Origin: Rubrobacter sp.
Lineage (GTDB): Bacteria > Actinomycetota > Rubrobacteria > Rubrobacterales > Rubrobacteraceae
Assembly: GCA_013695475.1 (NCBI GenBank)
Contig: JACDAJ010000220.1
Location: 1 to 53,025 of the forward strand
DNA: 53,025 nt
Direction: 5' to 3'
Shown: in pieces, positions 12,482 through 43,316 of the stretch
Position numbering within the stretch: the stretch's first letter is position 1
Layout of the letters: each line of letters begins with the position of its first letter
Notes under the pieces: model-generated
Told to the model about the DNA's origin: nothing
The model's input: only the letters and a program-made list of their open reading frames with translations
Databases searched by the model: none
Translations under genes and position numbers: made by a program

Positions 12482-12511
12482 CCTGAAGCCTGTTGCCTGA
12501 AACCTTTTTAA
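12482..12511. repeat. Intergenic stutter repeat (cctga-type)
   Basis: Short near-copies of the word cctgaarcct follow one another (cctgaagcct, gttgcctgaaacct) between the terminator and the 3' end of the UPF0173 gene. Similar stutters with different words occur in several other gaps of the window. Confidence 0.4.
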
Positions 12512-13233
12512 GAGGCGAGCCGGTCTCCCGGACTCATCACGTGGACTTCGGATTTGACTCCGAGATCGGAGAGATGGCCTTTGAATTCGTCCGGGGTTCC
12601 GGGGACGAACGGGAAGGTCCCGTAGTGGATCGGCACGACGTGATCCACGCCGAGGAGCCGGGTCGCATGCGCCGCCTCGAACGGACTCATCACGACGTTG
12701 TTCCCGATCGGCAAAAGCGCGAGGTCGGGATTGTATATCTCGCCGATTAATGCCATGTCCCCGAACACGCACGTGTCGCCCGCGTGGTACAGCTTGAAGC
12801 CGCTCTCGAACTCGACGACGAAGCCCATCGGCTCCCCGCCGTATATCGTCGAACCATCCTCGGTCTGGATGGAGGAGGAATGGAAGGCGTTCGTCCCGGT
12901 TACTTTTATCCCTCCGACCTGCGCGGTCCCGCCTTTATTCAGCGGCATCGCGTTCTCGATCCCCTGGCTTTGGAGGTATGCGAACGTCTCGAAGTTCGCC
13001 ACCACCGTCGCCCCGGTTTGCTTTGCGAGTGGGATGGTGTCTCCGAAGTGGTCGAAGTGGCCGTGGGTGAGGAGGATGGTGTCGAGTTCCCCGACCTCTT
13101 TCAGTTCCTCCGGGGTTTGCGGATTGTCCGTGATGAACGGGTCAATGATTATTTGCTCGTCGCCCGCCGTCGTCAGGCGGAAAGTCGCGTGGCCAAGGTA
13201 TGTGATCCTCGCCCCTCCCAAAAGCTGCTCCAT
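12508..13233 (-). CDS. UPF0173-type metal-dependent hydrolase (metallo-beta-lactamase fold)
   Basis: 241 residues. Hallmarks are ITYLGHATF near the N-terminus (UPF0173/UlaG-like), the zinc motif THGHFDHFGD at about residue 57, AFHSSS, YHAGDT with its metal-binding aspartate, and the late histidine in VVPIHYGTFP. That set covers the ligands of a two-metal hydrolase. The family includes UlaG-like lactonases, but most UPF0173 members have unknown substrates. A ribosome-binding site GAGGAAGGA precedes the ATG. It is divergent from the YdcZ-type transporter, with a 13-base tandem repeat between them. Confidence 0.87.
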   Translation of the reverse strand: MEQLLGGARITYLGHATFRLTTAGDEQIIIDPFITDNPQTPEELKEVGELDTILLTHGHFDHFGDTIPLAKQTGATVVANFETFAYLQSQGIENAMPLNKGGTAQVGGIKVTGTNAFHSSSIQTEDGSTIYGGEPMGFVVEFESGFKLYHAGDTCVFGDMALIGEIYNPDLALLPIGNNVVMSPFEAAHATRLLGVDHVVPIHYGTFPFVPGTPDEFKGHLSDLGVKSEVHVMSPGDRLAS

Positions 13234-13350
13234 AACGCATCCTTCCTCATAGTCGTAGACAACCGATACACATTAACGTATACCCGCCGCATTCGCCGGA
13301 GAAACGAACTATACTTCCCGACCCGGCCAACGCCGGAACGAGGGCGTCGC

Positions 13351-13394
13351 CCGGAGCCGCCACCCGGAGCCGCCACCCGGAGCCGCCACCCGGA
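13351..13394. repeat. 13-base tandem repeat, about 3.4 copies
   Basis: The unit ccggagccgccac is perfectly repeated at 13351-13363, 13364-13376 and 13377-13389, then a partial fourth copy. The unit is not a multiple of three and lies in the divergent gap between the UPF0173 hydrolase and the YdcZ-type transporter, about 50 bases before the latter's start. Confidence 0.85.
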
Positions 13395-13444
13395 AACCGC
13401 CTCATGAAACTGCCGCATGAAAACCAATCTTTGGGAGGGCTTAT

Positions 13445-13858
13445 TTGAAACTCGCCGTTCTTCTCGCAGCGGTCGCGGGCGTCGCGGTCGCAACGCAAGT
13501 CACGATAAACGCCGCCGCCGCCCGAAGCCTCGGACTCGCCGCGCTCATCTCGATCTCCGGCTTCGCAACCGGCTTCACCGCCCTCGCCTTCGCGCTCGTC
13601 TCCGCGAAGCCGGAGTTCACGACGAAGGCCGTTCTCTTCGGGGTCGCCTCGGGCATGCTCGGGTGCGTCCTCCTCGCCTCCGTGACATACGCCGTCGGAG
13701 TCGGCGGAGTCGCCCGCGCACTCTCGCTCCTCATCGCTTCGCAACTCATAGCCGGTCTCGTCTTCGATTATTTCGGCCTCTTCGGAGCGGAGATGAGCTT
13801 TGCGAAACTCCTCGGAGTCGCGCTCATAATCGTCGGAGGAATACTCGTCGTGAGATAG
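13445..13858 (+). CDS. YdcZ/DUF606-type DMT transporter
   Basis: 137 residues from TTG 13445, with GGGAGG about seven bases upstream. Almost wholly hydrophobic, with about four membrane segments, as expected for the half-size DUF606 (YdcZ) branch of the drug/metabolite transporter superfamily. Signature-like parts are AATQVTINAAAARSLG near the start and RALSLLIASQLIAGLVFDYFGLFG. Half-size members work as dimers. The substrate is unknown. Confidence 0.75.
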   Translation: MKLAVLLAAVAGVAVATQVTINAAAARSLGLAALISISGFATGFTALAFALVSAKPEFTTKAVLFGVASGMLGCVLLASVTYAVGVGGVARALSLLIASQLIAGLVFDYFGLFGAEMSFAKLLGVALIIVGGILVVR

Positions 13859-13987
13859 CTTTCAGCGGTTGGCCGTGAGCTTTCGATTTTCATTTCGCGG
13901 ATGTTCCCGAGGCATGGGGGATCGAGGTTTGGCCGGGAAGTTCGTGGCAACGAGATGCCTTCGGCGACGGACCGAGCGTCGCGCCGC

Positions 13988-14040
13988 TAAAATGCGAATG
14001 GCTAATCGCTAAAAGCTAAAAGCGCGACCGAAGGGAGCCA
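13988..14040. repeat. Intergenic stutter repeat ending in shared GCGACCGAAGGGAGC word
   Basis: Repeats of a gctaaa-type word (gctaatcgctaaaagctaaa) are followed by gcgaccgaagggagc at 14024-14038, a 15-mer found again at 41033-41047. The end of this element supplies the ribosome-binding site of the downstream GH15 gene. Confidence 0.6.
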
Positions 14041-14041
14041 C

Positions 14042-15838
14042 ATGGGATATCTCCCCATCGAAGACCACGCCATCATCGGCGATCTCCACACCGCCGCCCT
14101 CGTCGGGACGGACGGCACCATTGACTGGCTGTGCCTTCCCGCTTTCGACTCGCCGAGCGTTTTCTGCTCGATCCTCGACAGCGGGAAGGGCGGCCATTTC
14201 AAACTCCATCCGAAACGATACTTCCGAAGCCAGCAACTTTATTTGCCCGAGACGAATGTCCTTCTCACTCGCTTTCTTTGCTCCGACGGGGTGGCGGAAA
14301 TTCTGGATTTCATGCCCGTTATGGGCGACCCGAGCCAGCCCCACCGCCTCGTCCGGAATGTCCGCGTCGTCCAGGGAAACATGGACTTCGACCTCGATTG
14401 CCGCCCCGCCTTCGACTACGCGAGGAAAAGCCATTCGGTGTCAGTCGGCGAGAATGGAGTCGTTTTCGACTCCGGCGAATACTCCCTCGGAATTTCGTCG
14501 AGCCTCCCACTCGAAGAACGGGAAAACGGCGCGGCGGGCGCTTCTTTCGCGCTTTCGGAGGGTGAGAAGGCGACCTTCGTGCTTTCGGAGGAGACGGCGG
14601 AGGGGCCGGGGGGGCTTCTCTCCGACGAGGCGTTCGAGAGGCTTCTCCAAAGCACCATAGATTACTGGCGAGGGTGGATCTCCGGCTGCACGTACTCCGG
14701 CCGCTGGCGCGAGTTCGTCACCCGATCCGCGCTCGCGCTCAAACTGATGGTATACGACCCGACGGGCGCGCTCGTCGCCGCCCCGACGATGGGCCTCCCC
14801 GAGAGCGTCGGCGGCGAAAGAAACTGGGATTATCGGTACACGTGGCTCCGCGACGCGGGCTTCACTTTGTACGCGCTCATGGCGATCGGCTTCGACGAAG
14901 AGGCCGGACACTTCATGGAGTATCTCCGCGAACGATGCCAAAACGACGACGACGGCCTCCTTCAGCCGCTTTACGGCATTGACGGACGAGAGGAAATACA
15001 CGAGGAAAACCTCGACCATCTCTCGGGCTATATGGATTCGCGCCCCGTCCGACTCGGGAACGCCGCTTATTCGCAAACACAGCTCGACCTTTACGGAGCC
15101 GTCCTCGACGCGGCGTACCTTTACAACAAAAATGGCGCGCCGCTCGACTATGATCTCTGGCAAAACCTCCGACGCATCATAGACTGGCTCGCCGAAAACT
15201 GGCGCCAGACCGACGAGGGTATATGGGAGGTTCGGGGCGGGCAAAGGCACTTCGTGTCCTCGAAGCTCATGAGTTGGGTCGCGCTCGAAAGAGCCGTGAG
15301 AATTTCCCGCCAACGAGGGCTTCCCGCCGGCGATGGGCGATGGGTTCATGAGCGGGATGAGATATATGAGGAGATCATGGAGAAAGGATGGAACGAGGAG
15401 AAGGGGAGCTTCGTCCAAAGTTACGGATCGGAAGCCCTCGACGCCTCGCTCCTCCTCATGCCGCTCATGAAGTTCGTCGGCCCGACCGACCCGAGGTGGC
15501 TCTCGACCCTCGACGCCATCGAGCGCGAACTCACCCACGACACCCTCGTTGACCGGTACCGCCTCGAAGACTCCGCCGCCGACGACGGACTCGAAGGGGA
15601 AGAGGGGAGCTTCTCCATATGCTCTTTCTGGTACGTCGAGTGCCTCACCCGCGCCGGACGCCTCGACGACGCCCGCCTCGCATTCGAGAAAATGCTCTCA
15701 TACGCGAACCACGTCGGACTTTACGCCGAGGAGATCGGACGCTCCGGCGAGCACCTCGGGAACTTCCCGCAAGCCTTCACCCACCTCTCGCTCATCAGCG
15801 CGGCGATTCATTTGGATCGCGCCCTCGGGGCGCAATGA
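14042..15838 (+). CDS. Glycoside hydrolase family 15 protein (glucoamylase/trehalase type)
   Basis: 598 residues, the usual length of actinobacterial two-domain GH15 enzymes. It starts MGYLPIEDHAIIGDLHTAAL with the beta-sandwich domain (about 1-230), then the (alpha/alpha)6 barrel containing ERNWDYRYTWLRDAGFTLYAL, in which the WLRDA loop carries the general acid/base region. A second catalytic glutamate is expected near the C-terminal end, probably in LYAEEIGRSGEHLGNFPQAFTH. Family members release glucose from alpha-glucans or act as trehalases; sequence alone does not decide. No signal peptide, so cytoplasmic. AAGGGAG precedes the ATG. Confidence 0.9.
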   Translation: MGYLPIEDHAIIGDLHTAALVGTDGTIDWLCLPAFDSPSVFCSILDSGKGGHFKLHPKRYFRSQQLYLPETNVLLTRFLCSDGVAEILDFMPVMGDPSQPHRLVRNVRVVQGNMDFDLDCRPAFDYARKSHSVSVGENGVVFDSGEYSLGISSSLPLEERENGAAGASFALSEGEKATFVLSEETAEGPGGLLSDEAFERLLQSTIDYWRGWISGCTYSGRWREFVTRSALALKLMVYDPTGALVAAPTMGLPESVGGERNWDYRYTWLRDAGFTLYALMAIGFDEEAGHFMEYLRERCQNDDDGLLQPLYGIDGREEIHEENLDHLSGYMDSRPVRLGNAAYSQTQLDLYGAVLDAAYLYNKNGAPLDYDLWQNLRRIIDWLAENWRQTDEGIWEVRGGQRHFVSSKLMSWVALERAVRISRQRGLPAGDGRWVHERDEIYEEIMEKGWNEEKGSFVQSYGSEALDASLLLMPLMKFVGPTDPRWLSTLDAIERELTHDTLVDRYRLEDSAADDGLEGEEGSFSICSFWYVECLTRAGRLDDARLAFEKMLSYANHVGLYAEEIGRSGEHLGNFPQAFTHLSLISAAIHLDRALGAQ

Positions 15839-16022
15839 ACGTCGCTCCGCTCCTGGAATTCTCCCTCGACGAGCGCATCGAGGAAAGTGGCGATTCACAA
15901 AAATGTCGTCCGAGAATGGGCGGAGGATCGGGGCTTGCCTTTCGAGTTCGCGTGGCGGGTTCGCGAAGAGTGCATCGTCGCGCTCTCGGGTTAAGATGAT
16001 CGAAACGAGATCGGAGGAAGAA

Positions 16023-16862
16023 GTGAGCGGACGAATGATGGCCGCGGCGGCGATTCAAATGTCATCCACGCCGGACAAAAACGAGAACTTCGAGACGGCG
16101 GAAAACCTCATCCGCGAGGCGGCGAAACGGGGCGCGGAGTTCCTCGCGCTCCCGGAGATGTGGAGTTGCCACGGCCTCGACTCCGTATACCGCGAGAACG
16201 CCGAACCCATCCCCGGCCCGACGACGGATTTCCTCGGCTCGCTCGCGAAGGAACTCGGGATATACCTCCTCGGTGGCTCGATCTTCGAGGGTGAACCCGG
16301 CTCCGAACGCCTCTCGAACACTTCGACGTTCTTCACGCCCAACGGGGAACTCTCGGCGATATACCGCAAAATCCACCTCTTCGACGTGAAGGCCCCCGAC
16401 CGCGAATACCTCGAAAGCGCGACCATCGAGCCGGGGAGCGAGGTCGTCACGGCGAAGGCGGGGTCGGCGACCGTCGGCCTCTCGGTTTGTTATGACGTGC
16501 GTTTCCCGGAGCTTTATCGGATGCTCGCGCTTCGCGGGGCGGAAATAATGGCGGTTCCGGCGGCGTTCACTTTGCAAACCGGGAAGGATCATTGGGAAAT
16601 CCTCCTCCGCGCCCGTGCCATCGAGAACCAGTCATTCGTCGTCGCCCCCGCCCAGTGGGGGCAAAAAGCCGACGGGAGATGGACGTATGGACGCTCGATG
16701 CTCATTGACCCGTGGGGAACCGTCCTCGCCACATGCCCCGACCGCGACGGATTCGCCCTCGCCACCCTCGACCTCGAATACCTCGAACGCTTCCGCGAGG
16801 AGTTTCCGTCGCTCAAAAACCGCCGCCCGGAAAGTTATGCGGGATTATCCGGCGAGAAATAA
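16023..16862 (+). CDS. Nitrilase-superfamily amidohydrolase (Nit2-like)
   Basis: 279 residues from GTG 16023, chosen because GGAGGA at 16012-16017 fits it; ATG 15996 and ATG 16035 are alternatives. The catalytic triad is visible: Glu in LALPEMWS, Lys in IYRKIHLFD, Cys in SVCYDVRFPELYR. The last motif and RARAIENQSFVVAPAQWG are typical of the Nit1/Nit2 branch, which hydrolyses deaminated glutathione or omega-amides such as 2-oxoglutaramate. Cytoplasmic. Its last 18 bases overlap the convergent lactate permease gene. Confidence 0.88.
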   Translation: MSGRMMAAAAIQMSSTPDKNENFETAENLIREAAKRGAEFLALPEMWSCHGLDSVYRENAEPIPGPTTDFLGSLAKELGIYLLGGSIFEGEPGSERLSNTSTFFTPNGELSAIYRKIHLFDVKAPDREYLESATIEPGSEVVTAKAGSATVGLSVCYDVRFPELYRMLALRGAEIMAVPAAFTLQTGKDHWEILLRARAIENQSFVVAPAQWGQKADGRWTYGRSMLIDPWGTVLATCPDRDGFALATLDLEYLERFREEFPSLKNRRPESYAGLSGEK

Positions 16863-18269: not shown

Positions 18270-18278
18270 GATAGAATA

Positions 18279-18308
18279 TTGTCTACCAAATGAACGAAAG
18301 GTATACAA
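18279..18308. promoter_or_regulatory. Operator-like palindrome in the divergent lctP/regulator promoter
   Basis: Arms ttgtctacc (18279-18287) and ggtatacaa (18300-18308) pair at eight of nine positions around a 12-base centre. On the plus strand TTGTCT and TATACA are exactly 17 bases apart, a sigma70-like promoter. On the minus strand TTGTAT and TAGACA have the same spacing, so one symmetric sequence could serve both directions. The obvious ligand is the XRE-cupin protein encoded next to it. Confidence 0.5.
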
Positions 18309-18331
18309 GTAGTCGTGGCGGCGGGTCTTTG

Positions 18332-19004: not shown

Positions 19005-19040
19005 GAGCTAAAAGCCAACGGCTAAAAACTCAAAGCCAAC
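19005..19040. repeat. Intergenic stutter repeat (gctaaaagcc-type)
   Basis: Successive near-copies of a ctaaaagccaac-like word fill the gap before the 3' end of the zinc-ribbon gene, followed by gagcgagcc. It resembles the elements near 13990 and 40990. Confidence 0.45.
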
Positions 19041-23773: not shown

Positions 23774-23869
23774 GTGAGGTCGTGAGTCGCGCCGGTATGC
23801 CTTCGGCTCCGCGACGCTTCGTGAGATCGTATTTGTCGAACTCAAGAAGCGAGCGCCTCACGACCTCAC
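23774..23869. repeat. Intergenic inverted repeat with 13-base perfect arms
   Basis: gtgaggtcgtgag (23774-23786) pairs perfectly with 23857-23869 across about 70 bases that contain a gccttcggctccgcgac-like inner palindrome. The word aagcgagcgcctcac (23847-23861) recurs at 35934-35948 in the gap after the mutase gene. It sits between the convergent rocF and trkH genes. Confidence 0.65.
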
Positions 23870-23907: not shown

Positions 23908-25377
23908 TCACCTCCGCCAAAACGCCGGGGAAAGAAGCGCGAGCGCGGTGAATATTTCGAGGCGTCCGAGGAGCATGCATATTGTGAGGACGAGCCTTCC
24001 GAAGGAATTTACGACTTCATAACTTTCCGACGCTCCGACTTGCCCGAGGCCGGGGCCGACGACGTTGAGGGTCGCGGCGACCGCCGTCGCCGCGCTCACG
24101 ATGGTGAGGTTCGGCTGGAGGGCGACGAGGATGGTGGCGACGGCGAAGGTGATGAGCCACGCGGCGAATAGCGCGAGGACGGCGAGGCGCACTCCCTCGG
24201 GGATGACGTTCCCGCCGAGGCGGAGCGGGGTGATGGCGCGAGGGTGGATCATTCGGAAGACATCCCCACCAACGGTGCGGAACACGATCATGATCCGCAC
24301 GATTTTTATCCCGCCCGCCGTCGAACCCGCGCATCCCCCGACGAACATGAGCGCGACGAGGACGGCCTTCGCCGATGCGTCCCACGTGTCGAAATCCGCC
24401 GTTGTGAACCCGGTCGTCGTTATGATGCTCGACACCGCGAACGCCGAGTCGCGCAAAGCGTCTGCCGGATCCTCCGCGTAATCCCCGGTGAAGACGAGGA
24501 TGCCCCACACGAGGACGACCGAACCGGCGATGATCGCGAGATACGCCACGAGTTCCCGGTCGAGGAGAGTCCGCCAGTCGCGTCTCGTATACAACAAATA
24601 ATAAAGCGAGAACGACACTCCGGAGACGACCATGAAGAAGATGGCGACGGCCTCGACGGCGACGGAATCATAGTGTCCGATGGAGGCGGTTTTCGGGGAG
24701 AATCCCCCCGTCGCAACGGTCGTGAAAGTGTGGACGACCGCATCATAAACGTTCATCCCGGCTATGAGGAGGGCGATGGTTTGGGCGAGGGAGATGGATA
24801 TATACACGCCCACGAGAGCCTTCGCGGTGTCGGAGATGCGGGGCGTGAGGCGTGGCTGAGTGAGGCCGGACAACTCCGCCCCGAGGAGCCTCGCCGCCCC
24901 CGAGCCGAGCGCCGGAGCGACCGCGACGAGGAGTACGACAATGCCGACCCCGCCGAGCCACTGTGTCATCGAGCGCCAAAAGAGGATCGAAGGCGTTTCG
25001 GCTTCGATGTCCGAGAGAAGGGTCGAACCCGTCGTCGTGAAGCCGCTCATCGTCTCGAACGAAGAGTCGAGGATGCTCGTGAAAGTGCCTTCGATGAGGA
25101 ACGGAACCCCGCCGAGGAGAGCGGCGAGAACCCACGCGAGCGTGACGGAGAAGTATATTTCCCGCGTCCCGACGTATTCGATGGTTCCCCGGGTTGCCGG
25201 AGTCCGGGTGAGGTATACACCCGCCCCTCCGAGTGTCATCATCGCGAGCGAAGGAAAGAAGAAGCTCCGCCACGAGCCGTCGCCGTAAATGAAAGACACG
25301 GCGAGTGGGACGAGGAGCGCGGCTCCGATGGCGAGGACGATGCCCGCGTTCACCCGAAGCACGACCCTCGCTTTCAT
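23908..25377 (-). CDS. trkH: TrkH family potassium uptake protein (first copy)
   Basis: 489 residues with about ten membrane segments and four pore loops. The selectivity-filter stretches are SGFTTTGST, TVATGGFSP, ITTTGFTTAD and NVVGPGLGQVG, each with the conserved glycine. The loop KIVRIMIVFRTVGGD after GGCAGSTAGGIK is the typical gating region. Together with the TrkA protein it should mediate potassium uptake across the membrane. It is the last gene of the minus-strand order trkA, trkH2, trkH1, with 516 bases separating it from the other trkH. Confidence 0.92.
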   Translation of the reverse strand: MKARVVLRVNAGIVLAIGAALLVPLAVSFIYGDGSWRSFFFPSLAMMTLGGAGVYLTRTPATRGTIEYVGTREIYFSVTLAWVLAALLGGVPFLIEGTFTSILDSSFETMSGFTTTGSTLLSDIEAETPSILFWRSMTQWLGGVGIVVLLVAVAPALGSGAARLLGAELSGLTQPRLTPRISDTAKALVGVYISISLAQTIALLIAGMNVYDAVVHTFTTVATGGFSPKTASIGHYDSVAVEAVAIFFMVVSGVSFSLYYLLYTRRDWRTLLDRELVAYLAIIAGSVVLVWGILVFTGDYAEDPADALRDSAFAVSSIITTTGFTTADFDTWDASAKAVLVALMFVGGCAGSTAGGIKIVRIMIVFRTVGGDVFRMIHPRAITPLRLGGNVIPEGVRLAVLALFAAWLITFAVATILVALQPNLTIVSAATAVAATLNVVGPGLGQVGASESYEVVNSFGRLVLTICMLLGRLEIFTALALLSPAFWRR

Positions 25378-25893
25378 GAGGCGCGTCCGAGAAGGGCCGG
25401 GAGCCGAGAGCCGGGCGGAGGCGAGGAGGCGGAACTCATGCCGCCGAAGCCTCCGGTCTCATCCATGGAGAGGCCGGAAACCGCGAAGAGGCGGAAGGCC
25501 GACAGTTCGGGCGGCGACGGTGTTCGTGAGTCGTCCGGTGTTTCCTTTCGGCTCGCGGAGCGAAGTGGCTTCCGATCCCCGACCTCCGGTGTGTCCCGAA
25601 GGTTGTTCGGCGCACGCGGCGGCGTTTTCCCGGGCATCCGGGAGCCTCTCTTTCTTCGGCGCCTGCGAGGTTAGCTGTCGGGTTCGGGCCGAAAGAGTCA
25701 AGCCCTACGAAGAAAGCCGCGCTCCCTTCGATTCACCCCGAGATCCGCGTTTCATGGATCGCATTCTCGGTTCCCCCGTCCTCCGGCGGCTGCCCGGAGA
25801 TTCGGCGCTTTAGCCATGTGATTTTCGCCTCGGAGATATACTCCCGGCGATGGGGTTTGTCAACGAGGAGCGGCTCGCCTTCGGCGAACCGCC
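25378..25893. other. 516-base spacer between the two trkH genes
   Basis: No frame carries a recognisable protein; translations are Arg/Pro/Ser-rich. It contains, near the end of the upstream trkH gene, the 23-base block at 25868-25890 (gagcggctcgccttcggc...) that recurs at 43251-43273, including a small palindrome (tcgccttcggcga). A promoter for the downstream trkH could lie here, but I cannot point to one. Confidence 0.45.
25868..25890. repeat. Intergenic palindromic repeat, copy 1
   Basis: A 23-base sequence starting gagcggctcgcc, with inner palindrome tcgccttcggcga, is identical to 43251-43273. Both copies lie just past the stop codon of a gene: trkH2 here, the CAP protein there. Confidence 0.6.
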
Positions 25894-27342
25894 TCACGTC
25901 CGCCAGAATGCGGGGGTGAGAAGCACGAGGACGGTGAAGAGTTCGAGGCGTCCGAGGAGCATGAAGAAGGCGAGGATGAACTTCGCCGACGCGGGGAGGG
26001 CGGCGTAGAAATCGGGGTCGCCGACCGGGCCGAGCGAGGTGCCGGTGATGTTCACGCACGCGAAGACCGCCCCGAACGCCGAGCCGAGCGGGACTTGATG
26101 GAGCGCGATGAGGAGCGTGCCGACCGCCAGCGTCGCGCCGTACACGAAGAAAAAGCCGAGGAACGCGACGCGGAGTCGCTCTGGCACGACCCGGCCGTTC
26201 ATCGTGAGCGGGGTGACGGCGCGGGGGTGGATCATGCGGAACGCATCCTGCGCGGCGCTCTTCGCGAGAAGCACGATGCGAACCACTTTTATCCCCCCGC
26301 TCGTCGAACCCGCGCACCCGCCGATCGCCATGAGAACCATGAGGATGGCTTGCGAGAACGAGTCCCATGCGTTCCAGTCCGCCGTCGAGAACGCCGTCCC
26401 CGACGAGAGGCTCGCGCTCTGAAAAAGAGCCTCCCGGAACGAGCGAAGGAGCGAATCGTTGTAGTCGAAGAAATACAGCGAACCCGTCATGATCAATGCT
26501 CCCGTCGCGATGATGCCGAGATATGCGAGGAGTTCCGGGCTTGTCGCGGCCCGTCGGAGCCTTCCCTGCGCGGCGAAGAAATACAAAGTGAAGTTTGTCC
26601 CGGAAAGGATCATGCCGACTATGATCACGGCCTCGATGGGCGCGGAATCGAAGGCGGCTATCGAGTCCGAGCGGGTCGAGTACCCGCCCGTCGCCACCGT
26701 CGTGAAAGCGTGGTTCACCGCGTCGAAAAGCCCCATTCCGGCGAGGAGGAGCGCGGCGGAAATGCCGACGGTGAGGGAGAGGTATATGTACGTGAGAACC
26801 TTCGCCGTGTCTTGAATTCGCGGTGTGATGCGCTCCTGTGTCGGGTTCGGCATCTCGGCGGAATAAAGCTGCGTCGCGCCGAAGCCGACTATCGGGGCGA
26901 TGGAGACGAAGAGGACGATGATCCCGATGCCTCCGGCCCACTGGCTCATGCTCCGCCAGAGGAGGATCGAAGCCGCCGTGTCCTCGGGAACGAGTATCGT
27001 CGAGGCTCCGGTCGTCGTGAATCCGGCCATCGAGTCGAAAAAGGCGTTCACCGGGGAGAGAGTCCCGGAGACGGCGAATGGGATCGAGCCGATGGCCGCC
27101 ACCCCGATCCACCCGAGCGACACGATGAGGAAAACGTCGCGTATCGAGACATACGTGTTCTCGTTCCTTCGCGTGAAATAGAAAAGCACGCCCCCGCCCA
27201 CGATGGACGCGAACGCGGGAACGAGGAAGATGGGAGCGTTCCCTTCCCCGGTGAAGGCGGCGAATATCCCCGGAACGAGCATCGCCGCTCCGAGCGCGGC
27301 GGCGACCACACCGAGGGCGTTCGCTATGACTTTAATATGCAC
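25894..27342 (-). CDS. trkH: TrkH family potassium uptake protein (second, divergent copy)
   Basis: 482 residues with the same ten-segment layout. Filter loops are AGFTTTGAST, TVATGGYST, LSSGTAFSTAD and NITGTSLGPVG. The first two are canonical; the third has SSGT where the sister has TTGF, and the fourth has GTSLG where the sister has GPGLG. The key glycines remain, but ion selectivity or gating may differ between the copies. It begins 85 bases after trkA on the same strand, with a stutter repeat in between, and is the copy most tightly linked to trkA. Confidence 0.92.
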   Translation of the reverse strand: MHIKVIANALGVVAAALGAAMLVPGIFAAFTGEGNAPIFLVPAFASIVGGGVLFYFTRRNENTYVSIRDVFLIVSLGWIGVAAIGSIPFAVSGTLSPVNAFFDSMAGFTTTGASTILVPEDTAASILLWRSMSQWAGGIGIIVLFVSIAPIVGFGATQLYSAEMPNPTQERITPRIQDTAKVLTYIYLSLTVGISAALLLAGMGLFDAVNHAFTTVATGGYSTRSDSIAAFDSAPIEAVIIVGMILSGTNFTLYFFAAQGRLRRAATSPELLAYLGIIATGALIMTGSLYFFDYNDSLLRSFREALFQSASLSSGTAFSTADWNAWDSFSQAILMVLMAIGGCAGSTSGGIKVVRIVLLAKSAAQDAFRMIHPRAVTPLTMNGRVVPERLRVAFLGFFFVYGATLAVGTLLIALHQVPLGSAFGAVFACVNITGTSLGPVGDPDFYAALPASAKFILAFFMLLGRLELFTVLVLLTPAFWRT

Positions 27343-27344
27343 GT

Positions 27345-27427
27345 CGCTCCGCTCTGGTCGCTTTGCTCCCGGTTATTGGTTGTTGGTTTTTGTATTTGCC
27401 AATAATCGCGAGCGACAGCGAGCGACC
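27345..27427. repeat. Intergenic stutter repeat between trkA and trkH
   Basis: The words ggttattggttgttggttttt and ccaataatcgcgagcgac lie between flanks rich in gtcgct/gagcgac. In reverse complement the plan matches the element at 40966-41062 (flank, aaaaccaaaaacc-type stutter, gcgacc flank). Confidence 0.55.
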
Positions 27428-28762
27428 TCACGATGCGAAGAGTTTTTCGACCTCGTCCACCGCCGACTCGACGGTGAAGATGACCGCGTCGTCGCCCGGC
27501 TGGAGGGAGTCGCGGCCCGTCGGGATGATGACTTCCTCGCCCCGGAGGAGCGCGCCGATGATCGCCCCTTTCGGGAAGCTCACTTCGGAGAGGGGCCTCC
27601 CGTTGAGCGGACACTTCTCCGGGACTCGAAGCTCGATTATCTCGGCTCCGCCCTCGAGGAGCGCGACGTTCACTATTTCGCCCTTCCGAACGAAGCGGAG
27701 GATGGCCTCGGCGGCGAGCATCCTCGGGGAGATCGTAACGTCCACCCCGAGGGCTTCGGAGAGCGGCGCGAACTCGCCCCGGCTGAGGCCCGCGATGGTC
27801 CGCCTCGCCCCGAGCCGTCCCGCGTACATCGCCGCGAGGAGGTTCGCCCGGTCGTCTCCCGTGACGGCGACGAAGGCGTCGGCGTGGTCCACTCGTTCCT
27901 GGCGCAGGAAATCCTCGGTGAGGGCGTCGGCATGGAGCACGAAGCCGCGCTTCAGTTGCGAGGCTACGACGCGGGCGCGATCCTCGCTCCGCTCGATGAC
28001 TTTCACGCTCATCTTCGCCTTCTCGAGCGCGAGCGCGAGCCGAAGCCCGATCCTCCCTCCGCCGTATATGACGACGTCCTTCACGGGAGCGGTGTCGGTC
28101 GCGGCGGCCCGGACGACCTCGGCGAGCCGCCTCCGGCCGCTTATGAGGAGGACGTGATCCTTCTCCCGAAGCACGGTTCCGCCGCCGGGAACGAGGGCTT
28201 CGCCGTCTCGCACCACCCCGACGATGAGGCTTTGCTCCGGGAGTATCACGTCCTTGAGAGCCTGCCCGACTATGGGCGAGTCCTCGTCGAGCGCGACCTC
28301 CGCGACCTCGATGGAGTCGTTGGCGAAGTTGTCAATGTTTATGGCGCCGGGAACCATGAGCGCGTCCTTTATCGCCCTCGCCGCCATCTCCTCGGTGTGG
28401 ATGACGAAATCAATGCCGAGAAGGTCGCGGGCGAGGGGCTCCTCCGGGTCGTAATAATCCGGGTTGTGGAGGCGGGCGACCGTCCGCTCGACGCCTTGCG
28501 CCTTCGACGAGAGGCACGCGATGATGTTCACTTCGTCGGAGTTCGAGGAGGCGACGAGGAGGTCGGCCTTCTCGATGCCGGCTTCGGAGAGTGATTTCGG
28601 GCTGGCTCCGTTTCCGTGGATGACGAGGGCGTCGAGTTGTTCGGTCGCGGATTGGACGAGGGCTTCGTCCTGTTCGATGAGGACGACTTGGTGGCCTTCC
28701 CCCGACAACATCCGGGCCGTCGTGAAACCGACCTCGCCCGCGCCTATGATCACAGTCCGCAC
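27428..28762 (-). CDS. trkA: Trk system potassium uptake protein TrkA
   Basis: 444 residues, full length, with two RCK modules. The first nucleotide-binding motif is IIGAGEVGFTTARML at about 5-19; the second is VIYGGGRIGLRLALALE at about 230. Each Rossmann domain is followed by a TrkA-C domain (RDGEALVPGGGTVLREKDHVLLI and RGEEVIIPTGRDSLQPGDDAVIF). It is a peripheral cytoplasmic subunit that binds NAD(H)/ATP and gates TrkH. It is the first gene of a minus-strand operon with two trkH genes. Confidence 0.93.
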   Translation of the reverse strand: MRTVIIGAGEVGFTTARMLSGEGHQVVLIEQDEALVQSATEQLDALVIHGNGASPKSLSEAGIEKADLLVASSNSDEVNIIACLSSKAQGVERTVARLHNPDYYDPEEPLARDLLGIDFVIHTEEMAARAIKDALMVPGAINIDNFANDSIEVAEVALDEDSPIVGQALKDVILPEQSLIVGVVRDGEALVPGGGTVLREKDHVLLISGRRRLAEVVRAAATDTAPVKDVVIYGGGRIGLRLALALEKAKMSVKVIERSEDRARVVASQLKRGFVLHADALTEDFLRQERVDHADAFVAVTGDDRANLLAAMYAGRLGARRTIAGLSRGEFAPLSEALGVDVTISPRMLAAEAILRFVRKGEIVNVALLEGGAEIIELRVPEKCPLNGRPLSEVSFPKGAIIGALLRGEEVIIPTGRDSLQPGDDAVIFTVESAVDEVEKLFAS

Positions 28763-34292: not shown

Positions 34293-35891
34293 ATGGACAC
34301 CGACAAAAAGCGCGACGAAAACGAACGCCGCACCGAGAGCGGCATCGAAGTCGAGCCTCTCTATAAACCGGGGAATATGAACGGCTTCGACTACGACGAA
34401 TCCCTCGGAGACCCCGGCGAATACCCGTACACCCGAGGTGTGTATCCGTCCATGTACCGCGGCCGACCGTGGACGATGCGCCAGTACGCCGGGTTCGGAA
34501 CCGCGAAGGAAACCAACGAGCGTTTCAAATACCTCACCGAGAACGGGCAGACCGGACTCTCGACCGCCTTCGACCTCCCGACGCAGATGGGGCGCGACTC
34601 CGACCATCCCCTCGCCGCCGGAGAAGTCGGGAAAGTCGGGGTCGCCATTGACTCGATACTCGACATGCGCGAGCTTTTCGACGGAATATCCCTCGCCGAA
34701 GTCTCGACTTCGATGACGATAAACGCGACCGCCTCGACGCTCCTCCTTCTTTATTCGCTCGTCGCCGAGGAACAAGGCGCGAAGCCCGACGAAATAACCG
34801 GGACGACGCAAAACGACATCCTCAAGGAATACCTCGCCCGCGGCACGTACATATACCCGCCCGAGCCGTCCATGCGCCTCACCACCGACATGTTCGCGTA
34901 TTGCGCGAGCGAGCTTCCGAAGTGGAACACCATCTCGATCTCCGGGTACCACATCCGGGAGGCCGGAAGTACCGCCGTTCAAGAACTCGCATTCACCCTC
35001 TCGAACGCCATCGCGTATGTCGAAGCGGCGGTCGAGGCGGGTCTCGAAGTGGACGAGTTCGCGCCGCGGCTCTCGTTCTTCTTCAACGCTCACAACGACC
35101 TTTTTCAGGAAGTGGCGAAATATCGGGCGGCGAGGCGGATGTGGGCGGCGATCATGAAGGACCGGTTCGGGGCGAAGAGCGAGAAGAGCATGAAGCTCCG
35201 CTTCCACACGCAAACGGCGGGTTCCTCATTGACCGCGCAGCAAGCCGAAAACAACATCGTGAGAACGACCGTTCAAGCCCTCTCCGCCGTTTTCGGCGGG
35301 ACGCAAAGTTTGCACACGAACGCCTTCGACGAGGCGCTCGCCCTTCCGACGGAGCGGAGCGCGAGGATCGCATTGCGTACGCAGCAAATCCTCGCGAGCG
35401 AGGGCGGCGTCACCGACACCGCCGACCCACTCGCGGGTTCGTACTATGTCGAGTCGCTCACCGACGCGGTGGAAGAAGAAGCGTGGGCATACATCGAGCG
35501 CATAGACGAGATGGGGGGATCGGTATCCGCCATCGAAGAGCGGTACATGCAGCGGGAGATCGAAGACGCCGCCTTCCGTTACCAGCGCGAGGTCGAGAAA
35601 GAAGAACGCATAATAGTCGGCATGAACCGCCACGAATCCGACGAAGACCCGGATATGGATCTCCACTCCGTGGACGAGTCCATCCAAACGAGCCAAACCG
35701 AACGCCTCTCCGAACTGAAAGAGAGCCGGGACAATCCGGCGGTCGAGAAGTCCCTCGCCCGGATAAAGGCCGCCGCCGAAAACGGAGAAAACCTCCTTTA
35801 TCCGATGAAAGAAGCCCTCGGGAGCATGGCGACCCTCGGCGAGGTTTCGGACACATTGCGGGGCGTGTTCGGTGAATACCGGCCGTCGTGA
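34293..35891 (+). CDS. Methylmalonyl-CoA mutase, large (substrate-binding) subunit
   Basis: 532 residues. The catalytic TIM barrel is complete: [71 protein letters not shown] and the conserved [38 protein letters not shown]. The cobalamin-binding domain (DxHxxG) is absent, so this is the two-gene arrangement in which a separate small B12 subunit is needed; that gene is not in the window. It converts methylmalonyl-CoA to succinyl-CoA. Clustered with the epimerase. Confidence 0.92.
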
Positions 35892-35892
35892 G

Positions 35893-35953
35893 GAGTGGTG
35901 ATTGGTTTTGCTTTCCACTACTCGCTATTCACCAAGCGAGCGCCTCACCACTC
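35893..35953. repeat. Intergenic inverted repeat after the mutase gene
   Basis: gagtggtga (35893-35901) pairs with tcaccactc (35945-35953). Between them a stutter of ccacta/tattcacca words; aagcgagcgcctcac at 35934-35948 is shared with 23847-23861. Confidence 0.55.
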
Positions 35954-36038
35954 ACCGCCCTTCACGGTGATAACATTTCCCGCAGAGAAGGGTTCTTGAT
36001 CCTATTTGATACACACCCTCACAGGAGGATTCCAAACC

Positions 36039-38770: not shown

Positions 38771-38894
38771 ACGCGCTTTCGCAATATGCTTTTGAGCGAG
38801 GTTCTGCGCGGATAACGATTTCGATGACCTCGCGCAGAGTTCGTCCGTTCGGCGACGAGACTTCCCCGGCTCGCCGTGGATGGTGGGTGCGGGG

Positions 38895-39824
<930 letters not shown>

Positions 39825-39913
39825 GCTTCTCCCTCCGTGGAATTGGCGAATCTCCGGCGAATGATAAGTTAATCCGCTCGCTTTTGCCGGGGTATATCGT
39901 CGGCGGCGTGTGC

Positions 39914-39919
39914 TATAAG
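39914..39919 (+). promoter_or_regulatory. -10 box of the NUDIX gene (leaderless)
   Basis: TATAAG ends six bases before the ATG at 39926. No ribosome-binding site is visible, so the message likely starts at the codon. Confidence 0.5.
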
Positions 39920-39925
39920 AAGTGT

Positions 39926-40390
39926 ATGATCGAACACAGTCACGATTCGCCGCCGCGACCGAAAGAGCTTCCCCGCACCGACGTCGGATACGCCCTCATC
40001 TCCGACCCGGCGCTCGAAAAGATACTCATGGTTTGCAACCGCCGCGCGTCCGGGCTTTCATGGAGCCTCCCCGGCGGCTCCCGCGAACCGGGCGAAACCC
40101 TCGAAGAAACCGTCGTGCGCGAGACGCGCGAGGAGACGGGCCTCCACGTCGTCGTCGAAGGCATCGTCGCCGTCGGGGAGAGGCTCCGGAACAGCCACGT
40201 CCTCATCGCCACCTTCGTCGCGAAGACCGTCGGCGGAAGAGCCTCCCTCCAAAAAGACGACGAGGAAGTCGTCAAAGTCGAGTGGGCGCCCTTCGATGTC
40301 GCCGACACCCGGATGCCGTGGTATCCGGGCGGAGTCCGCGTCCTCCTCGAAGGCCGCGGAGCCGTTCATTACAGCGAGTTTCTTTTTTGA
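39926..40390 (+). CDS. NUDIX hydrolase
   Basis: 154 residues from ATG 39926; the frame is open further upstream but without a coherent protein. The NUDIX box is complete and canonical: GGSREPGETLEETVVRETREETG (G-x5-E-x7-RETREETG). It hydrolyses a nucleoside diphosphate linked to another moiety, and the substrate is unknown. Its stop overlaps the next gene's start as TGATG, so it is translationally coupled to the nitroreductase. A housecleaning role is inferred from the family. Confidence 0.9.
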   Translation: MIEHSHDSPPRPKELPRTDVGYALISDPALEKILMVCNRRASGLSWSLPGGSREPGETLEETVVRETREETGLHVVVEGIVAVGERLRNSHVLIATFVAKTVGGRASLQKDDEEVVKVEWAPFDVADTRMPWYPGGVRVLLEGRGAVHYSEFLF

Positions 40391-40965
40391 TGGACGTCTC
40401 CGAAGCCATAACGAGCCGGAGGAGCATCGGGAGAGTGACGCATGAACCCGTCCCCCGAGAGACGGTCGAGGCCATTCTCGAAAGCGCGATCCACGCCCCG
40501 AACCACAAAATTACCGAGCCGTGGCGCTTCCACGTCTTCGCCGGAAAAGGCCGCGGCGAACTCGCCAAAGCCCGGGCCGAAGTCGCCCGGATAATGGCCG
40601 GGGAGGAGCGCGAAGACGAAGAACTCGTGAAAGGCCGGATCAGCCGCGAGAGGAAGAAAGCTTTCCGCGCCCCCGTCGTCATCGCCGTCATCTCGAAGGC
40701 CGGGCGCGACGAGGTCGAGACGGTGGAGAATTACGCGGCATGCTCCGCCGCCGTCCAAAACATGCAATTGACCGCCCACTCCCTCGGACTCGGGGCGATG
40801 TGGCGAACCGGCCCGGTCGCGTACCACGAGCACATGCGAGAGTTCTTCGGCCTCGAAGAAGGCGACCGGATCGTCGCGTATCTTTATGTCGGATACCCGG
40901 ATCTCTCCGAGACGAGGCGAAGGCGCGAGCCATTCGAGCAAATGACGACATGGCACGAAGGATGA
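40390..40965 (+). CDS. Nitroreductase family protein
   Basis: 191 residues from ATG 40390, overlapping the NUDIX stop. FMN-binding motifs of the nitroreductase fold: the N-terminal AITSRRSIGRVTHEPVP with the Arg-Arg-Ser phosphate contact, SAIHAPNHKITEPWRF, the central NYAACSAAVQNMQLTAHSLGLGAMW, and GDRIVAYLYVGYP. It reduces nitro or quinone compounds, or could be of the YdjA type. Dimer, cytoplasmic. The substrate is not evident. Confidence 0.88.
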   Translation: MDVSEAITSRRSIGRVTHEPVPRETVEAILESAIHAPNHKITEPWRFHVFAGKGRGELAKARAEVARIMAGEEREDEELVKGRISRERKKAFRAPVVIAVISKAGRDEVETVENYAACSAAVQNMQLTAHSLGLGAMWRTGPVAYHEHMREFFGLEEGDRIVAYLYVGYPDLSETRRRREPFEQMTTWHEG

Positions 40966-41062
40966 GGTCGCTCCGCCTTCGGCTCCGCTCCGGTAATTGG
41001 CGAAAACTCAAAACCAAAAACCAAAAACCGGAGCGACCGAAGGGAGCGGCAAGCGAAGCGAC
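40966..41062. repeat. Intergenic stutter repeat element
   Basis: Left flank gaggtcgctccgccttcgg, then a stutter of aaaactc/aaaacc words, then gcgaccgaagggagc (41033-41047, shared with 14024-14038) and an aagcgaagcgacc flank. In reverse complement it has the same plan as 27345-27427. Confidence 0.55.
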
Positions 41063-41143
41063 CCATCGTTTCCAGCGACTTTCGGGCGGGTATCACGCAT
41101 GGACGGGAAATGAAACGCACTTCGAGACTTCGAGGAGGTGGCT

Positions 41144-41245
41144 ATGGGAAGATTGCTCAGGCGGTTGCTGATTTTGGCGGCCCCGATAATCTGGAAGAAG
41201 TTCCGCGAGAACCGTAAACGCAAGAAAGAGGGTGAACGCCGCTAA
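41144..41245 (+). CDS. 33-residue basic small protein
   Basis: A perfect GAGGAGG at about 41132-41138 precedes ATG 41144. The product begins MGRLLRRLLILAAPIIWKKF and ends RENRKRKKEGERR: a short hydrophobic or amphipathic stretch followed by a strongly basic tail. It overlaps the convergent MBL-fold gene by four bases. Too short for standard gene callers, but the ribosome-binding site and typical codon choice make it credible. The function is unknown; a membrane-surface peptide is one possibility. Confidence 0.5.
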   Translation: MGRLLRRLLILAAPIIWKKFRENRKRKKEGERR

Positions 41246-42054
41246 TTTTCCAGCGGGGTCGCCTCGAAGTTTTTGCCGGACTTCCGGATTTTGACGAGGC
41301 AATCCTTCGGCTCGTGGTAAAGGATGACCGGGGCGTTCCTTTTCTCGGCCTCGGAGAGAACCTCGATCCGGTTCCGGCGGGCGGCCTCCGGGTCAGTGTC
41401 CACCCCGGCTATGATGTCCGGGTCGAGGAATATTTTGCTCGGGGCGAGGTCGGCTGTGAAGAGCGCCTCGCTCCCGTCGATCCACACGATTTGATGCCCC
41501 TCCGAATGACCCGCCCGAACCTCGACATATATTCCTTTCGCCACCTCCCCATCCCCGTCCACAAGCTCGACCCACCCTTCTTCGACGCCCTTTTCGAGGG
41601 ACTTCACCGCGAGGTTTCTTCCGTCTTCCTCGGGCATGTTTTTCGCTTCTTCGAGTGCGCCTCTTTGCGCGTATATCGTCGCGTGGGGGAAGCTCGGCGG
41701 GTTTATCGCCCATCCGACGTGGTCCGGGTCGAGGTGCGAGAGGACGACGTGGGTGACGTCCTCCGGCGAGTTCCCCGTCTCCTCGATCGCTTCGAGAAGC
41801 GTCTTCTCGCGCCGGAGTTCGTAGCGTCCTTCGAGGGTTTCGGGGACGCTCTCTCCGAAGCCCGCGTCGAGGAGGACGAGTTCGCCGTCGTCTTCTCCGA
41901 GGGATTCTATGAGGACGGCGTGCATCGCGCCCCGGATACGCATCTTCCGCCCGCCCGTGTCGCCGAGAATATTGCCCGCGTCGGTGATGAAAAGTCCGTC
42001 CTCGAGGACATGGACTCGCTTCGATTTCGTCTCGAACGCCGCTTTCTTCGCCAA
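41242..42054 (-). CDS. MBL-fold metallohydrolase
   Basis: 270 residues. The metal motif is VVLSHLDPDHVGWA (HxDxDH at about residue 108), then the second histidine in VEVRAGHSEGHQIVW, ALFTADLAPSK with the bridging aspartate, and a late histidine in VILYHEPKD. It resembles quinolone- or homoserine-lactonase-like members (HLDPDH rather than HxHxDH), so a lactone or thioester substrate is possible, but the call is family level only. It faces the small basic protein gene at its 3' end. Confidence 0.82.
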   Translation of the reverse strand: MAKKAAFETKSKRVHVLEDGLFITDAGNILGDTGGRKMRIRGAMHAVLIESLGEDDGELVLLDAGFGESVPETLEGRYELRREKTLLEAIEETGNSPEDVTHVVLSHLDPDHVGWAINPPSFPHATIYAQRGALEEAKNMPEEDGRNLAVKSLEKGVEEGWVELVDGDGEVAKGIYVEVRAGHSEGHQIVWIDGSEALFTADLAPSKIFLDPDIIAGVDTDPEAARRNRIEVLSEAEKRNAPVILYHEPKDCLVKIRKSGKNFEATPLEN

Positions 42055-42245
42055 ATCGTTAAAGCCTCCGTGGTGTGTGGACGATCATAAGACAACCATT
42101 TTATGGCCGCGCGCCACGCTATGGCGGCGGGAGGCCGGAGATGAACGAGGAAAATAGTTCATTCGGAGTATGGTGGATGGTTCGCGGAGCGGGCATAATG
42201 CGCCGGAGTCGGACTCACAGGAGAGGAAAAGGTCGAGGAGAAAAC

Positions 42246-43250
42246 ATGTCCCGTTTGAAGATAGCCACGATCCCATTAGCCGCCATGTTTCTGTTTTTCT
42301 TCGCCGCCTCGGGCATGGCGAGCGCGGACACGTCGTATGACACCGACGAACGAAGGTTCCTCGAACTCATAAACGAGTACCGCGCCCAAAACGGAGCCGG
42401 CCCGCTCGTCCTCTCCGACGACCTCACCGTCGCCTCCGAGCATCACAACGAGGACATGGCCGAATACAACTTCTTCGCCCACGACACCGTCGGAAGCTCC
42501 CGGTACCCCGCCGGCTCCGAGCCGTGGGGCCGGATGGCCGCCGAAGGCTACGACCACAATACTTTCAAAGGCGAAAACCTCGCCGTCGGATACGAGAGCG
42601 TCGAGGAGGTTTTCCAGGCGTGGAAGGACTCCCCGAGCCACAACACCGCGATGCTCGACCCGAATTACAAAGTCGTCGGAGTGTCGCGCATGCAAATTTC
42701 CGGCTCGACGTTCGAGTGGTATTGGACGACTGACTTCGGAGGCTTCGTTGACGCCTCCGCCCGAACCGCCGAAGACGAGCCGGAAGACCCTCCAGCCCCG
42801 GAGCCGCCGACTCCGCCGGAGCCGAGGAACCTCCTGGAAAATAGTGGATTCGTGGATCAGGAAGCCGGGTGGGAGCAGTGGGCGATGGACGGGGCGATGC
42901 TCATTCTCAAGGGCGAGTTCGCGAGGCTCGGCGGATACGATGACGGCGTGGACGAGCTTCGCCAGGAAGTGAGGATCACAGACGGAGCGAGGCTTTCGTA
43001 CAGCGTCAAGGTCACGACCGAAGAGAGCGCGCCGTTCGGCGACCGGATGACCGTCCGGCTCACCGACGAGGATCGCACAGAGGCGACCGTCCTCAAACGC
43101 TATACGGGCGAGGACGCCGGGGAATGGCGCCGCGAAACCATAGACCTCTCCGAATACGCGGGCGAGACGGGATACCTCAGCTTCGCCGCCGGAACCGACG
43201 AGGACGGCCTCACGAACTTCTATCTCGACAACGTCCGCCTCGTCGGGTGA
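42246..43250 (+). CDS. Secreted CAP-domain protein with C-terminal carbohydrate-binding-like module
   Basis: 334 residues from ATG 42246 with GAGGAG upstream. A signal peptide (about 1-27: basic start, AAMFLFFFAASGMA, cleavage near ASA-DT) precedes a CAP/SCP domain (about 32-170) with RRFLELINEYRAQNG, FFAHDT, GENLAVGYESVEEVFQAWKDSPSHNTAMLDPNYKVVGV. A Pro-rich linker (EPPTPPEP) leads to a beta-sandwich-like module (about 195-334, LLENSGF...FYLDNVRLV). Secreted or envelope-attached. Bacterial CAP proteins are common but mostly of unknown role; wall interaction is plausible. Confidence 0.85.
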   Translation: MSRLKIATIPLAAMFLFFFAASGMASADTSYDTDERRFLELINEYRAQNGAGPLVLSDDLTVASEHHNEDMAEYNFFAHDTVGSSRYPAGSEPWGRMAAEGYDHNTFKGENLAVGYESVEEVFQAWKDSPSHNTAMLDPNYKVVGVSRMQISGSTFEWYWTTDFGGFVDASARTAEDEPEDPPAPEPPTPPEPRNLLENSGFVDQEAGWEQWAMDGAMLILKGEFARLGGYDDGVDELRQEVRITDGARLSYSVKVTTEESAPFGDRMTVRLTDEDRTEATVLKRYTGEDAGEWRRETIDLSEYAGETGYLSFAAGTDEDGLTNFYLDNVRLVG

Positions 43251-43316
43251 GAGCGGCTCGCCTTCGGCGAACCCGCGCTCGTCAGCATTTCAGCCGGCCA
43301 GCTTTTCAGCGGAAAC
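43251..43316. repeat. Intergenic palindromic repeat copy 2 plus stutter
   Basis: 43251-43273 is identical to 25868-25890 (inner palindrome tcgccttcggcga). It is followed by a cagcatttcagccggccagc stutter to about 43316. Confidence 0.55.

What the first reader, a model, noticed from the sequence alone, without database searches (positions are those of the whole stretch)
12482..43316. Family of intergenic stutter and inverted-repeat elements
At least eight gaps carry runs of short repeated words (cctgaagcct-type at 12482, gctaaaagcc-type at 13988 and 19005, ttggttattgg-type at 27345, aaaaccaaaaacc-type at 40966, cagcatttcagcc-type at 43283) or long inverted arms (23774-23869, 35893-35953). They share flanking words: gcgaccgaagggagc at 14024 and 41033, aagcgagcgcctcac at 23847 and 35934, and a 23-base block at 25868 and 43251. 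The core word differs from copy to copy while the plan is kept, which is unlike an ordinary REP or MITE family.
Basis: seen in the sequence. Interest (0 to 1): 0.7.

Follow-up and report, generated by a model that had tools for sequence, protein, structure and literature searches.

The report
Heptamer-armed inverted repeats with switchable words
Many gaps between genes in this bacterium hold a small inverted repeat whose two arms are built from stuttered seven-letter words; related species keep the inverted repeat at the same gene but often spell it with a different seven-letter word, so the layout outlasts the spelling by a process nobody has explained.

Summary
The stutters are degenerate tandem heptamers: autocorrelation in intergenic DNA peaks at 7, 14 and 21. 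They usually come as inverted pairs, either compact (loop up to ~35 nt, strong fold) or spaced (~85-130 nt, spacer mostly not conserved). Whole-genome scans of 37 family members found 246 spaced pairs facing inward and none facing outward. Several words coexist (TTGGTTN, TCAGGYN, TCAGCNN, TYRGTTY, TCGGGAG); they fit one plan, TYRG plus a variable triplet, and are mixed within single arrays in some relatives. Against a same-genus genome (86% identity), 147 orthologous gaps show retention (13 co-occupied vs 6.4 expected after length control, 2/5000 permutations). At most co-occupied sites the word is respelled, and at two it is replaced outright. This is not a RAYT/REP family: no Y1 transposase or reverse transcriptase is found in G000 or G001. 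The arms do not co-vary unit by unit, so a precisely paired RNA is not being maintained. The kind is known: cyanobacterial heptamer repeats, Xanthomonas (GGGANTN)n and Beggiatoaceae TAACTGA share most traits. New here are the inward-only layout with two spacing classes and word replacement at orthologous sites. Mechanism and function are inferred, not shown.

The parts
12482..12504 (.). single heptamer arm, CCTGAAN class (TCAGGNN on the other strand), in the gap between convergent genes
   Evidence: sequence; class enriched genome-wide; orthologous gap in G001 lacks it
13859..13890 (+). left arm of a spaced element directly after the stop of the 13445-13858 gene: CTTTCAGCGGTTGGCCGTGAGCTTTCGATTTT
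   Evidence: sequence; G001 has GTTTCAGGCATCAGG at the same place
13985..14023 (+). right arm, GCTAAAA class; G001 has CCTGAAA class at the orthologous place
14024..14038 (+). shared flank GCGACCGAAGGGAGC, 3 nt before the next gene's start; doubles as a Shine-Dalgarno-like site
19005..19040 (.). heptamer arm, GCTAAAA/GCCAACG class
   Evidence: sequence
23774..23869 (.). inverted repeat, arms 19 nt, word GTGAGGTC (8-nt class) with inner GTATTTGTCGAACTC; G001 has TCAGGNN arms in the orthologous gap
   Evidence: arms; z -5.1; ortholog
25868..25890 (.). 23-base flank block GAGCGGCTCGCCTTCGGCGAACC (hairpin with TTCG loop)
   Evidence: 2 copies in 980 kb, expected ~0
27343..27427 (.). compact element: GGTCGCT-type flank, GGTTATT/GGTTGTT arm, TTTTTGTATTTG loop, CCAATAATC arm, GCGAGCGACC flank; G001 has a mixed GGTTATT/CCGAGAA version at the same site
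   Evidence: fold z -4.4
35880..35960 (.). inverted repeat with GTGAGGAGTGGTGA arms and CTACTCGCTATTC stutter
   Evidence: sequence; fold z -2.6
40966..41047 (.). compact element: flank GGTCGCTCCGCCTTCGGCTCCGCTCC, arm GGTAATTGG, array AAAACCAAAAACCAAAAACC (41002-41033), flank GGAGCGACCGAAGGGAGC (word at 41033-41047)
   Evidence: fold z -5.4
43251..43273 (.). second copy of the 23-base flank block
43282..43311 (.). stuttered GTCAGCATTTCAGCCGGCCAGCTTTTCAGC array (TCAGCNN class), followed by an ordinary terminator hairpin
   Evidence: sequence
43684..43709 (.). GAAACCCGACGCCCGAAGCCCCGAGC array near the convergent gene's end

Best explanation
These are dispersed, non-coding intergenic elements. 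Shown: each is usually an inward-facing pair of arrays of a degenerate heptamer, TYRG plus a variable triplet (not all arrays fit strictly), either compact (loop up to ~35 nt) or spaced by ~85-130 nt. They lie mostly within a few tens of nt after a stop codon. Sites are retained between species more than chance while the heptamer word is respelled or replaced. Inferred: the inverted pair, not the single array, is the unit that arises and spreads, in the manner of a REPIN or MITE, served by an enzyme not identified here. After insertion the arms turn over by gain and loss of 7-bp units and by exchange of arm sequence between dispersed copies, which is how a genome comes to share a vocabulary and a site changes word without losing its plan. 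Transcripts crossing a compact element would carry a stable hairpin just after the upstream gene, a likely mild effect on mRNA 3' ends or cistron separation, enough to explain tolerance there and depletion in divergent gaps.
For: Lag-7 periodicity specific to intergenic DNA. Spaced pairs TCAGN3TCAG-N86-116-CTGAN3CTGA: 246 in 37 whole genomes, against 0 in the outward orientation with the same spacing; gaps cluster at 84-129 nt for the G/C classes and at 0-34 nt for the T class. Compact elements fold with mean z -5.3, 42 of 47 below -2; whole spaced elements z -3.4. Retention: 13 co-occupied of 147 orthologous gaps vs 6.4 expected within length bins, 2/5000 permutations, other lags near zero. 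Word change: 13859-14041 GCTAAAA to CCTGAAA; C158:31081 GGTTATT to GGTTTCA with relic GCCAATAACC still in place (arm-wise rewriting); C131:7431, C33:4313, C275:5330, C186:4485, C158:4124 GGTTATT to [AG]GTTCT[TC]. C12:2519 same word but loop sequence reversed. Mixed AGG/AGC/AGT units in one array in G012 and G024.
Against: No mobilising enzyme was found and no empty-site or target-duplication test was achieved. Spacer sequences are mostly unrelated (6 of 29 have a relative), so copies are old or the spacer is not copied with the arms. Arms do not match each other at the variable triplet beyond chance (G000 z -2.1, G001 z +2.2), which argues against recent hairpin-templated copying. Adjacent units are no more alike than others in the same array for the GTT class, which weakens simple slippage. 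Only two species were compared in depth, from draft genomes. In G021 inward pairs also occur at 40-70 nt (100) and 140-170 nt (24), partly double elements or windows cut inside long arrays, so the ~105-nt spacing is not exclusive.
Confidence: 0.5

Rival explanations
1. Plain heptanucleotide microsatellites (STRR or long simple sequence repeats) that grow by polymerase slippage in weakly constrained gaps, with no element identity.
For: Strict 7-nt period; degenerate units; the same kind of array in cyanobacteria and Bacteroidota, some more than 20 units long; the introduction of PMC4679880 reports 7-nt units as the most abundant long repeats in most genomes of an earlier survey, with slippage proposed.
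Against: Slippage cannot give inward-only pairing (246 vs 0), two spacing classes, shared flanks or retention of the site through a word change. Arrays here are short (up to 9 units) and adjacent GTT-class units are not more alike.
Confidence: 0.2
2. REP/REPIN elements moved by a RAYT (Y1) transposase.
For: Inverted doublets with constrained spacing and poorly conserved spacer, as described for REPINs (PMC3116915).
Against: PF01797 has no match in G000, G001, G021 and four others; only G028 has it. Spacers alone are not structured (z -0.7). The core is a heptamer array, not a 20-40 bp palindrome.
Confidence: 0.04
3. Structural RNA or DNA hairpins kept by selection as terminators, attenuators or mRNA stabilisers.
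For: Strong folds, position 27-42 nt after stops and depletion in divergent gaps in G000, no overlap with known RNA families.
Against: Variable triplets of the two arms do not co-vary; no U-tract was seen after the stems read; true terminators are separate hairpins nearby; many sites are empty in the other species.
Confidence: 0.14
4. Binding arrays for a sequence-specific protein that reads a 4-bp core every 7 bp in inverted arrangement; the word drifts with the protein's specificity.
For: Core positions conserved and triplet free; fixed 7-bp step; inward-only inverted geometry at two spacings; genome-specific vocabulary.
Against: Several words coexist in one genome and no reader protein was sought or found; this would not by itself explain dispersal.
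Confidence: 0.12

Closest known systems
Intergenic heptameric repeats of Xanthomonas, (GGGAATC)n / (GGGANTN)n, and Nostoc GGGGA(C/T)T (PMC4692102)
   Same: 7-nt units with fixed and free positions; 89-93% intergenic in Xanthomonas; on average 28 nt after the upstream gene versus 160 nt before the next; many convergent inverted pairs; tandem gaps favoured, divergent gaps rare; hundreds of sites. The GGGAGTC class here is the same pattern.
   Different: There one G-rich word per genome, studied for G-quadruplexes; here several words, most without G-tracts; compact and ~105-nt spaced pairs, shared flanks, and word replacement at orthologous sites.
Short tandemly repeated repetitive (STRR) heptamers of heterocystous cyanobacteria (from memory; Calothrix heptamers are cited in PMC4692102)
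   Same: Degenerate heptamer tandems, several words per genome, intergenic; cyanobacterial loci fetched here also show inverted partner arms and mixed words.
   Different: Cyanobacterial arrays are longer; inward-only pairing and word switching were not found reported in the library searched.
TAACTGA direct repeats of Beggiatoaceae, cyanobacteria and some Bacteroidetes (PMC4679880)
   Same: Intergenic heptamer (TCAG-TTA on the other strand, the same TYRG-NNN plan).
   Different: One invariant word, direct repeats just upstream of start codons, related heptamers rarely repeated, only one indirect repeat.
REPINs (PMC3116915)
   Same: Inverted doublets with a length-constrained, poorly conserved spacer, dispersed in extragenic space.
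   Different: No RAYT found; arms are heptamer arrays; spacers alone do not fold; words change between orthologous copies.

Membership tests
Heptameric intergenic repeats (STRR / Xanthomonas type) | tandem units with 7-nt period, degenerate | tested here: met
   lag 7/14/21 peaks, 52 vs 7.6 and 40 vs 3.0
Heptameric intergenic repeats (STRR / Xanthomonas type) | concentrated in intergenic DNA | tested here: met
   59 and 119 segments per 100 kb intergenic vs 6.8 and 6.3 coding
Heptameric intergenic repeats (STRR / Xanthomonas type) | closer to the upstream gene's end; convergent inverted pairs | tested here: met
   medians 42/27 nt after stop; 246 inward vs 0 outward pairs
Heptameric intergenic repeats (STRR / Xanthomonas type) | G-tracts able to form a three-layer quadruplex (Xanthomonas explanation) | tested here: not met
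   dominant words GGTTNTT, AGTTCTC, AGGTTTC, AGCTTTC lack G3 tracts; only the GGGAGTC/GGGAGTG class has them
REP / REPIN with RAYT | RAYT (Y1) transposase in the genome | tested here: not met
   PF01797 absent in G000, G001, G021; found only in G028; drafts are 92% and 82% complete
REP / REPIN with RAYT | inverted doublet with constrained spacing | tested here: met
REP / REPIN with RAYT | spacer able to fold | tested here: not met
   spacer z mean -0.67 in 37 elements
REP / REPIN with RAYT | GTAG or CGTC tag at the palindrome foot | not tested
   no systematic tag search was made
MITE | target-site duplication and a parent transposon sharing the ends | tested here: inconclusive
   few inward pairs at 0.4-3 kb and the genes inside were not identified; flanks not clean enough to call duplications
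Reverse-transcriptase-written repeats (retron, DGR) | reverse transcriptase gene | tested here: not met
   PF00078 absent in 8 family genomes
Known structured RNA | Rfam match at gathering score | tested here: not met
   only a c-di-AMP riboswitch and three tRNAs in the window

The most novel reading that the evidence does not exclude
The seven-letter words are written, not merely drifted: an unidentified copying or recombination system rewrites the arms of dispersed inverted repeats with whichever heptamer is current in that genome, keeping the TYRG core and the layout, so that species differ in vocabulary at the same sites.
Probability: 0.15. Interest if true: 0.85.

Novelty: new variant of a known kind. 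Interest (0 to 1): 0.55.

Why it matters
Heptamer repeats turn up in many phyla, and the papers read here offer slippage, regulation or quadruplexes to explain them. The inward-only pairing, the two spacing classes and the change of word at fixed sites do not follow from any of these. A same-genus pair at 86% identity with dozens of comparable sites gives a system in which the origin of these repeats can be tested: which arm changes first, where the new word comes from, and what holds the layout. If the plan TYRG-NNN holds across phyla, one reader or writer may underlie several separately named repeats.

Tried and rejected
RAYT-moved REP: PF01797 absent. Reverse-transcriptase writing: PF00078 absent. 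Precisely paired hairpin kept by selection or by hairpin-templated copying: arm triplets do not co-vary. Simple slippage as sole cause: adjacent GTT-class units not more alike than non-adjacent ones and orientation bias. G-quadruplex: most words lack G3 tracts. A conserved cargo in the ~105-nt spacer: 23 of 29 spacers have no relative in the DNA held. Strict TYRG inverted-pair detection as the orthology test: too strict for the G000 words (3 shared sites, p 0.24), so lag-7 detection was used. TYRG across phyla: several literature words fit, but a random heptamer fits in ~20% of cases (own estimate) and STRR words such as CCCCAGT (from memory) do not, so it is a suggestion only.
Full report
WHAT WAS CHECKED. 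The window is contig C126 of a 3.31-Mb draft genome in 318 contigs. About 980 kb of this genome (G000), 754 kb of a same-genus genome (G001) and ~240 kb of a more distant relative (G021) were fetched and genes called with a home-made hexamer model. That model is good enough to separate coding from intergenic DNA but not for exact starts.

The flank word GCGACCGAAGGGAGC occurs 47 times in the genome and 39 times in the genus-mate, 0 for the reversed control; scattered copies occur in the family and none in 24 genomes of other families. k-mer counts show that the enriched intergenic words are heptamer stutters plus GC-rich flanks such as GGTCGCTTCGCTCC and CGGAGCCGAAGGCGGAGC. Runs of matches at lag 7 are 52 vs 7.6 shuffled in G000 and 40 vs 3.0 in G001, with echoes at 14 and 21. 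In G000 lags 8, 9, 13, 15 and 16 are also raised, probably from flanks and an 8-nt word. Stutter segments are roughly 9 to 19 times denser in intergenic than in coding DNA.

THE WORDS. The main words are TTGGTTA/G/T/C in G000; TYRGTTC/T and TCAGGTT/GCT/GCA in G001; TCAGCTT/CTA/CCG in G021; TCGGGAG in G000 and G001. All fit a tetramer TYRG followed by three free letters. In G001 48 of 115 arrays fit in one register throughout, against 5.3 after permuting unit positions; in G021 9 vs 0.8; in G000 13 vs 4.8. Arrays within a genome are not independent, so these ratios describe the pattern rather than test it. In G012 and G024 units of the AGG, AGC and AGT classes alternate inside one array, so the classes are a continuum.

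THE LAYOUT. Arrays usually come as inverted pairs facing inward. For the T-class words the gap between arms is 0-34 nt; for the G/C-class words it is either under ~35 nt or 84-129 nt, with few pairs between. In 37 whole genomes the pattern TCAGN3TCAG-N(86-116)-CTGAN3CTGA occurs 246 times, and the outward version with the same spacing never. In G001 the inward counts fall to 3 at 40-70 nt and 11 at 140-170 nt against 41 at 86-116; in G021 they are 100 and 24 against 115, where the shorter class is inflated by double elements and long arrays. Spacers of the spaced class are mostly unrelated in sequence and do not fold (z -0.67). Compact elements fold strongly (z -5.3) and whole spaced elements moderately (z -3.4).

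PLACE. Elements lie a median 42 nt (G000) and 27 nt (G001) after a stop codon and about 80 nt before a start; they are about half as dense or less in divergent gaps in G000, less clearly in G001. In 13 of 39 copies the flank word lies 3-7 nt before a start codon, where its GAAGGGAG doubles as a ribosome-binding site.

THE SAME SITES IN A SECOND SPECIES. Flanking 400-bp gene ends were used to pair 147 orthologous gaps at 86% identity. With a lag-7 detector, 13 gaps carry arrays in both, 9 in G000 only, 20 in G001 only (Fisher p 5e-5, other lags near zero); permutation within length bins expects 6.4 and reaches 13 in 2 of 5000. A few of the 13 pairs look like chance hits or unrelated words (C313:9268, C254:4239). 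At 13859-14041 a GCTAAAA element in G000 is a CCTGAAA element in G001, with the same flank word after it. At C158:31081 GGTTATT arms face GGTTTCA arms that still enclose the relic GCCAATAACC. At C131:7431, C33:4313, C275:5330, C186:4485 and C158:4124 GGTTATT faces [AG]GTTCT[TC]. At C131:7431 the outer flanks join the element within a few nt of the same place in both. At C12:2519 the word is unchanged but the loop is reversed.

TESTS THAT CUT AGAINST EASY ANSWERS. The variable triplets of the two arms of one element are no more complementary than arms of different elements in G000, and only slightly in G001. So exact pairing is not maintained, and hairpin-templated copying is not visible. Adjacent units of the GTT class are not more alike than non-adjacent ones in the same array, so simple tandem slippage does not leave its usual trace, although the broader TYRG set shows a weak effect. 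No Y1 transposase or reverse transcriptase is found in this genome or its genus-mate.

KNOWN RELATIVES. The Xanthomonas (GGGANTN)n repeats are strikingly similar in placement, heterogeneity and convergent pairing (PMC4692102). TAACTGA repeats (PMC4679880) and cyanobacterial heptamers belong to the same kind. Cyanobacterial and Bacteroidota contigs fetched by pattern also show inverted partner arms, several words in one array and, in Maribacter, GGTCGCT-type flanks. The finding is therefore a new variant of a known but poorly explained kind.

BEST READING. The inverted pair is the unit. Its arms are rewritten or exchanged within a genome more quickly than the site is lost. What moves or writes it, and whether the hairpin does anything for the cell, remains open. 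Shown: period, pairing, orientation, spacing, placement, retention, word change, absence of RAYT and RT hits. Inferred: mobility, exchange between copies, effect on transcripts.

Noticed in passing
25645-25817 (-): c-di-AMP riboswitch (RF00379, 90 bits) upstream of a TrkH potassium transporter (23908-25377, -), beside a second TrkH (25894-27342, -) and TrkA (27428-28753, -).
   Followed up: partly
51580-51844 (+): tRNA cluster Gly(GCC)-Cys(GCA)-Val(GAC).
   Followed up: no
23774-23869, 35880-35960, and 27681-27851 of contig C234 (L326): An 8-nt word class (GTGAGGTC / GTGAGATC) in the same layout, with inner GTATTTSTCGAACTC at two sites, showing that not all cores are heptamers.
   Followed up: partly
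L240, L195, L283, L249, L241: Cyanobacterial and Maribacter contigs carry heptamer arrays with inverted partner arms, several words in one array, and in Maribacter GGTCGCT-type flanks like those here.
   Followed up: partly
L110 (contig C158 of this genome, near 48100-48155): CTGACA-N17-TATAAT promoter-like pair in which the -35 hexamer is part of a heptamer unit of the right arm; G001 keeps it as CTGACA/TATACT.
   Followed up: no
13345-13394: Three tandem 13-bp copies of CCGGAGCCGCCAC upstream of the 13445 gene, absent from the orthologous gap in G001.
   Followed up: no
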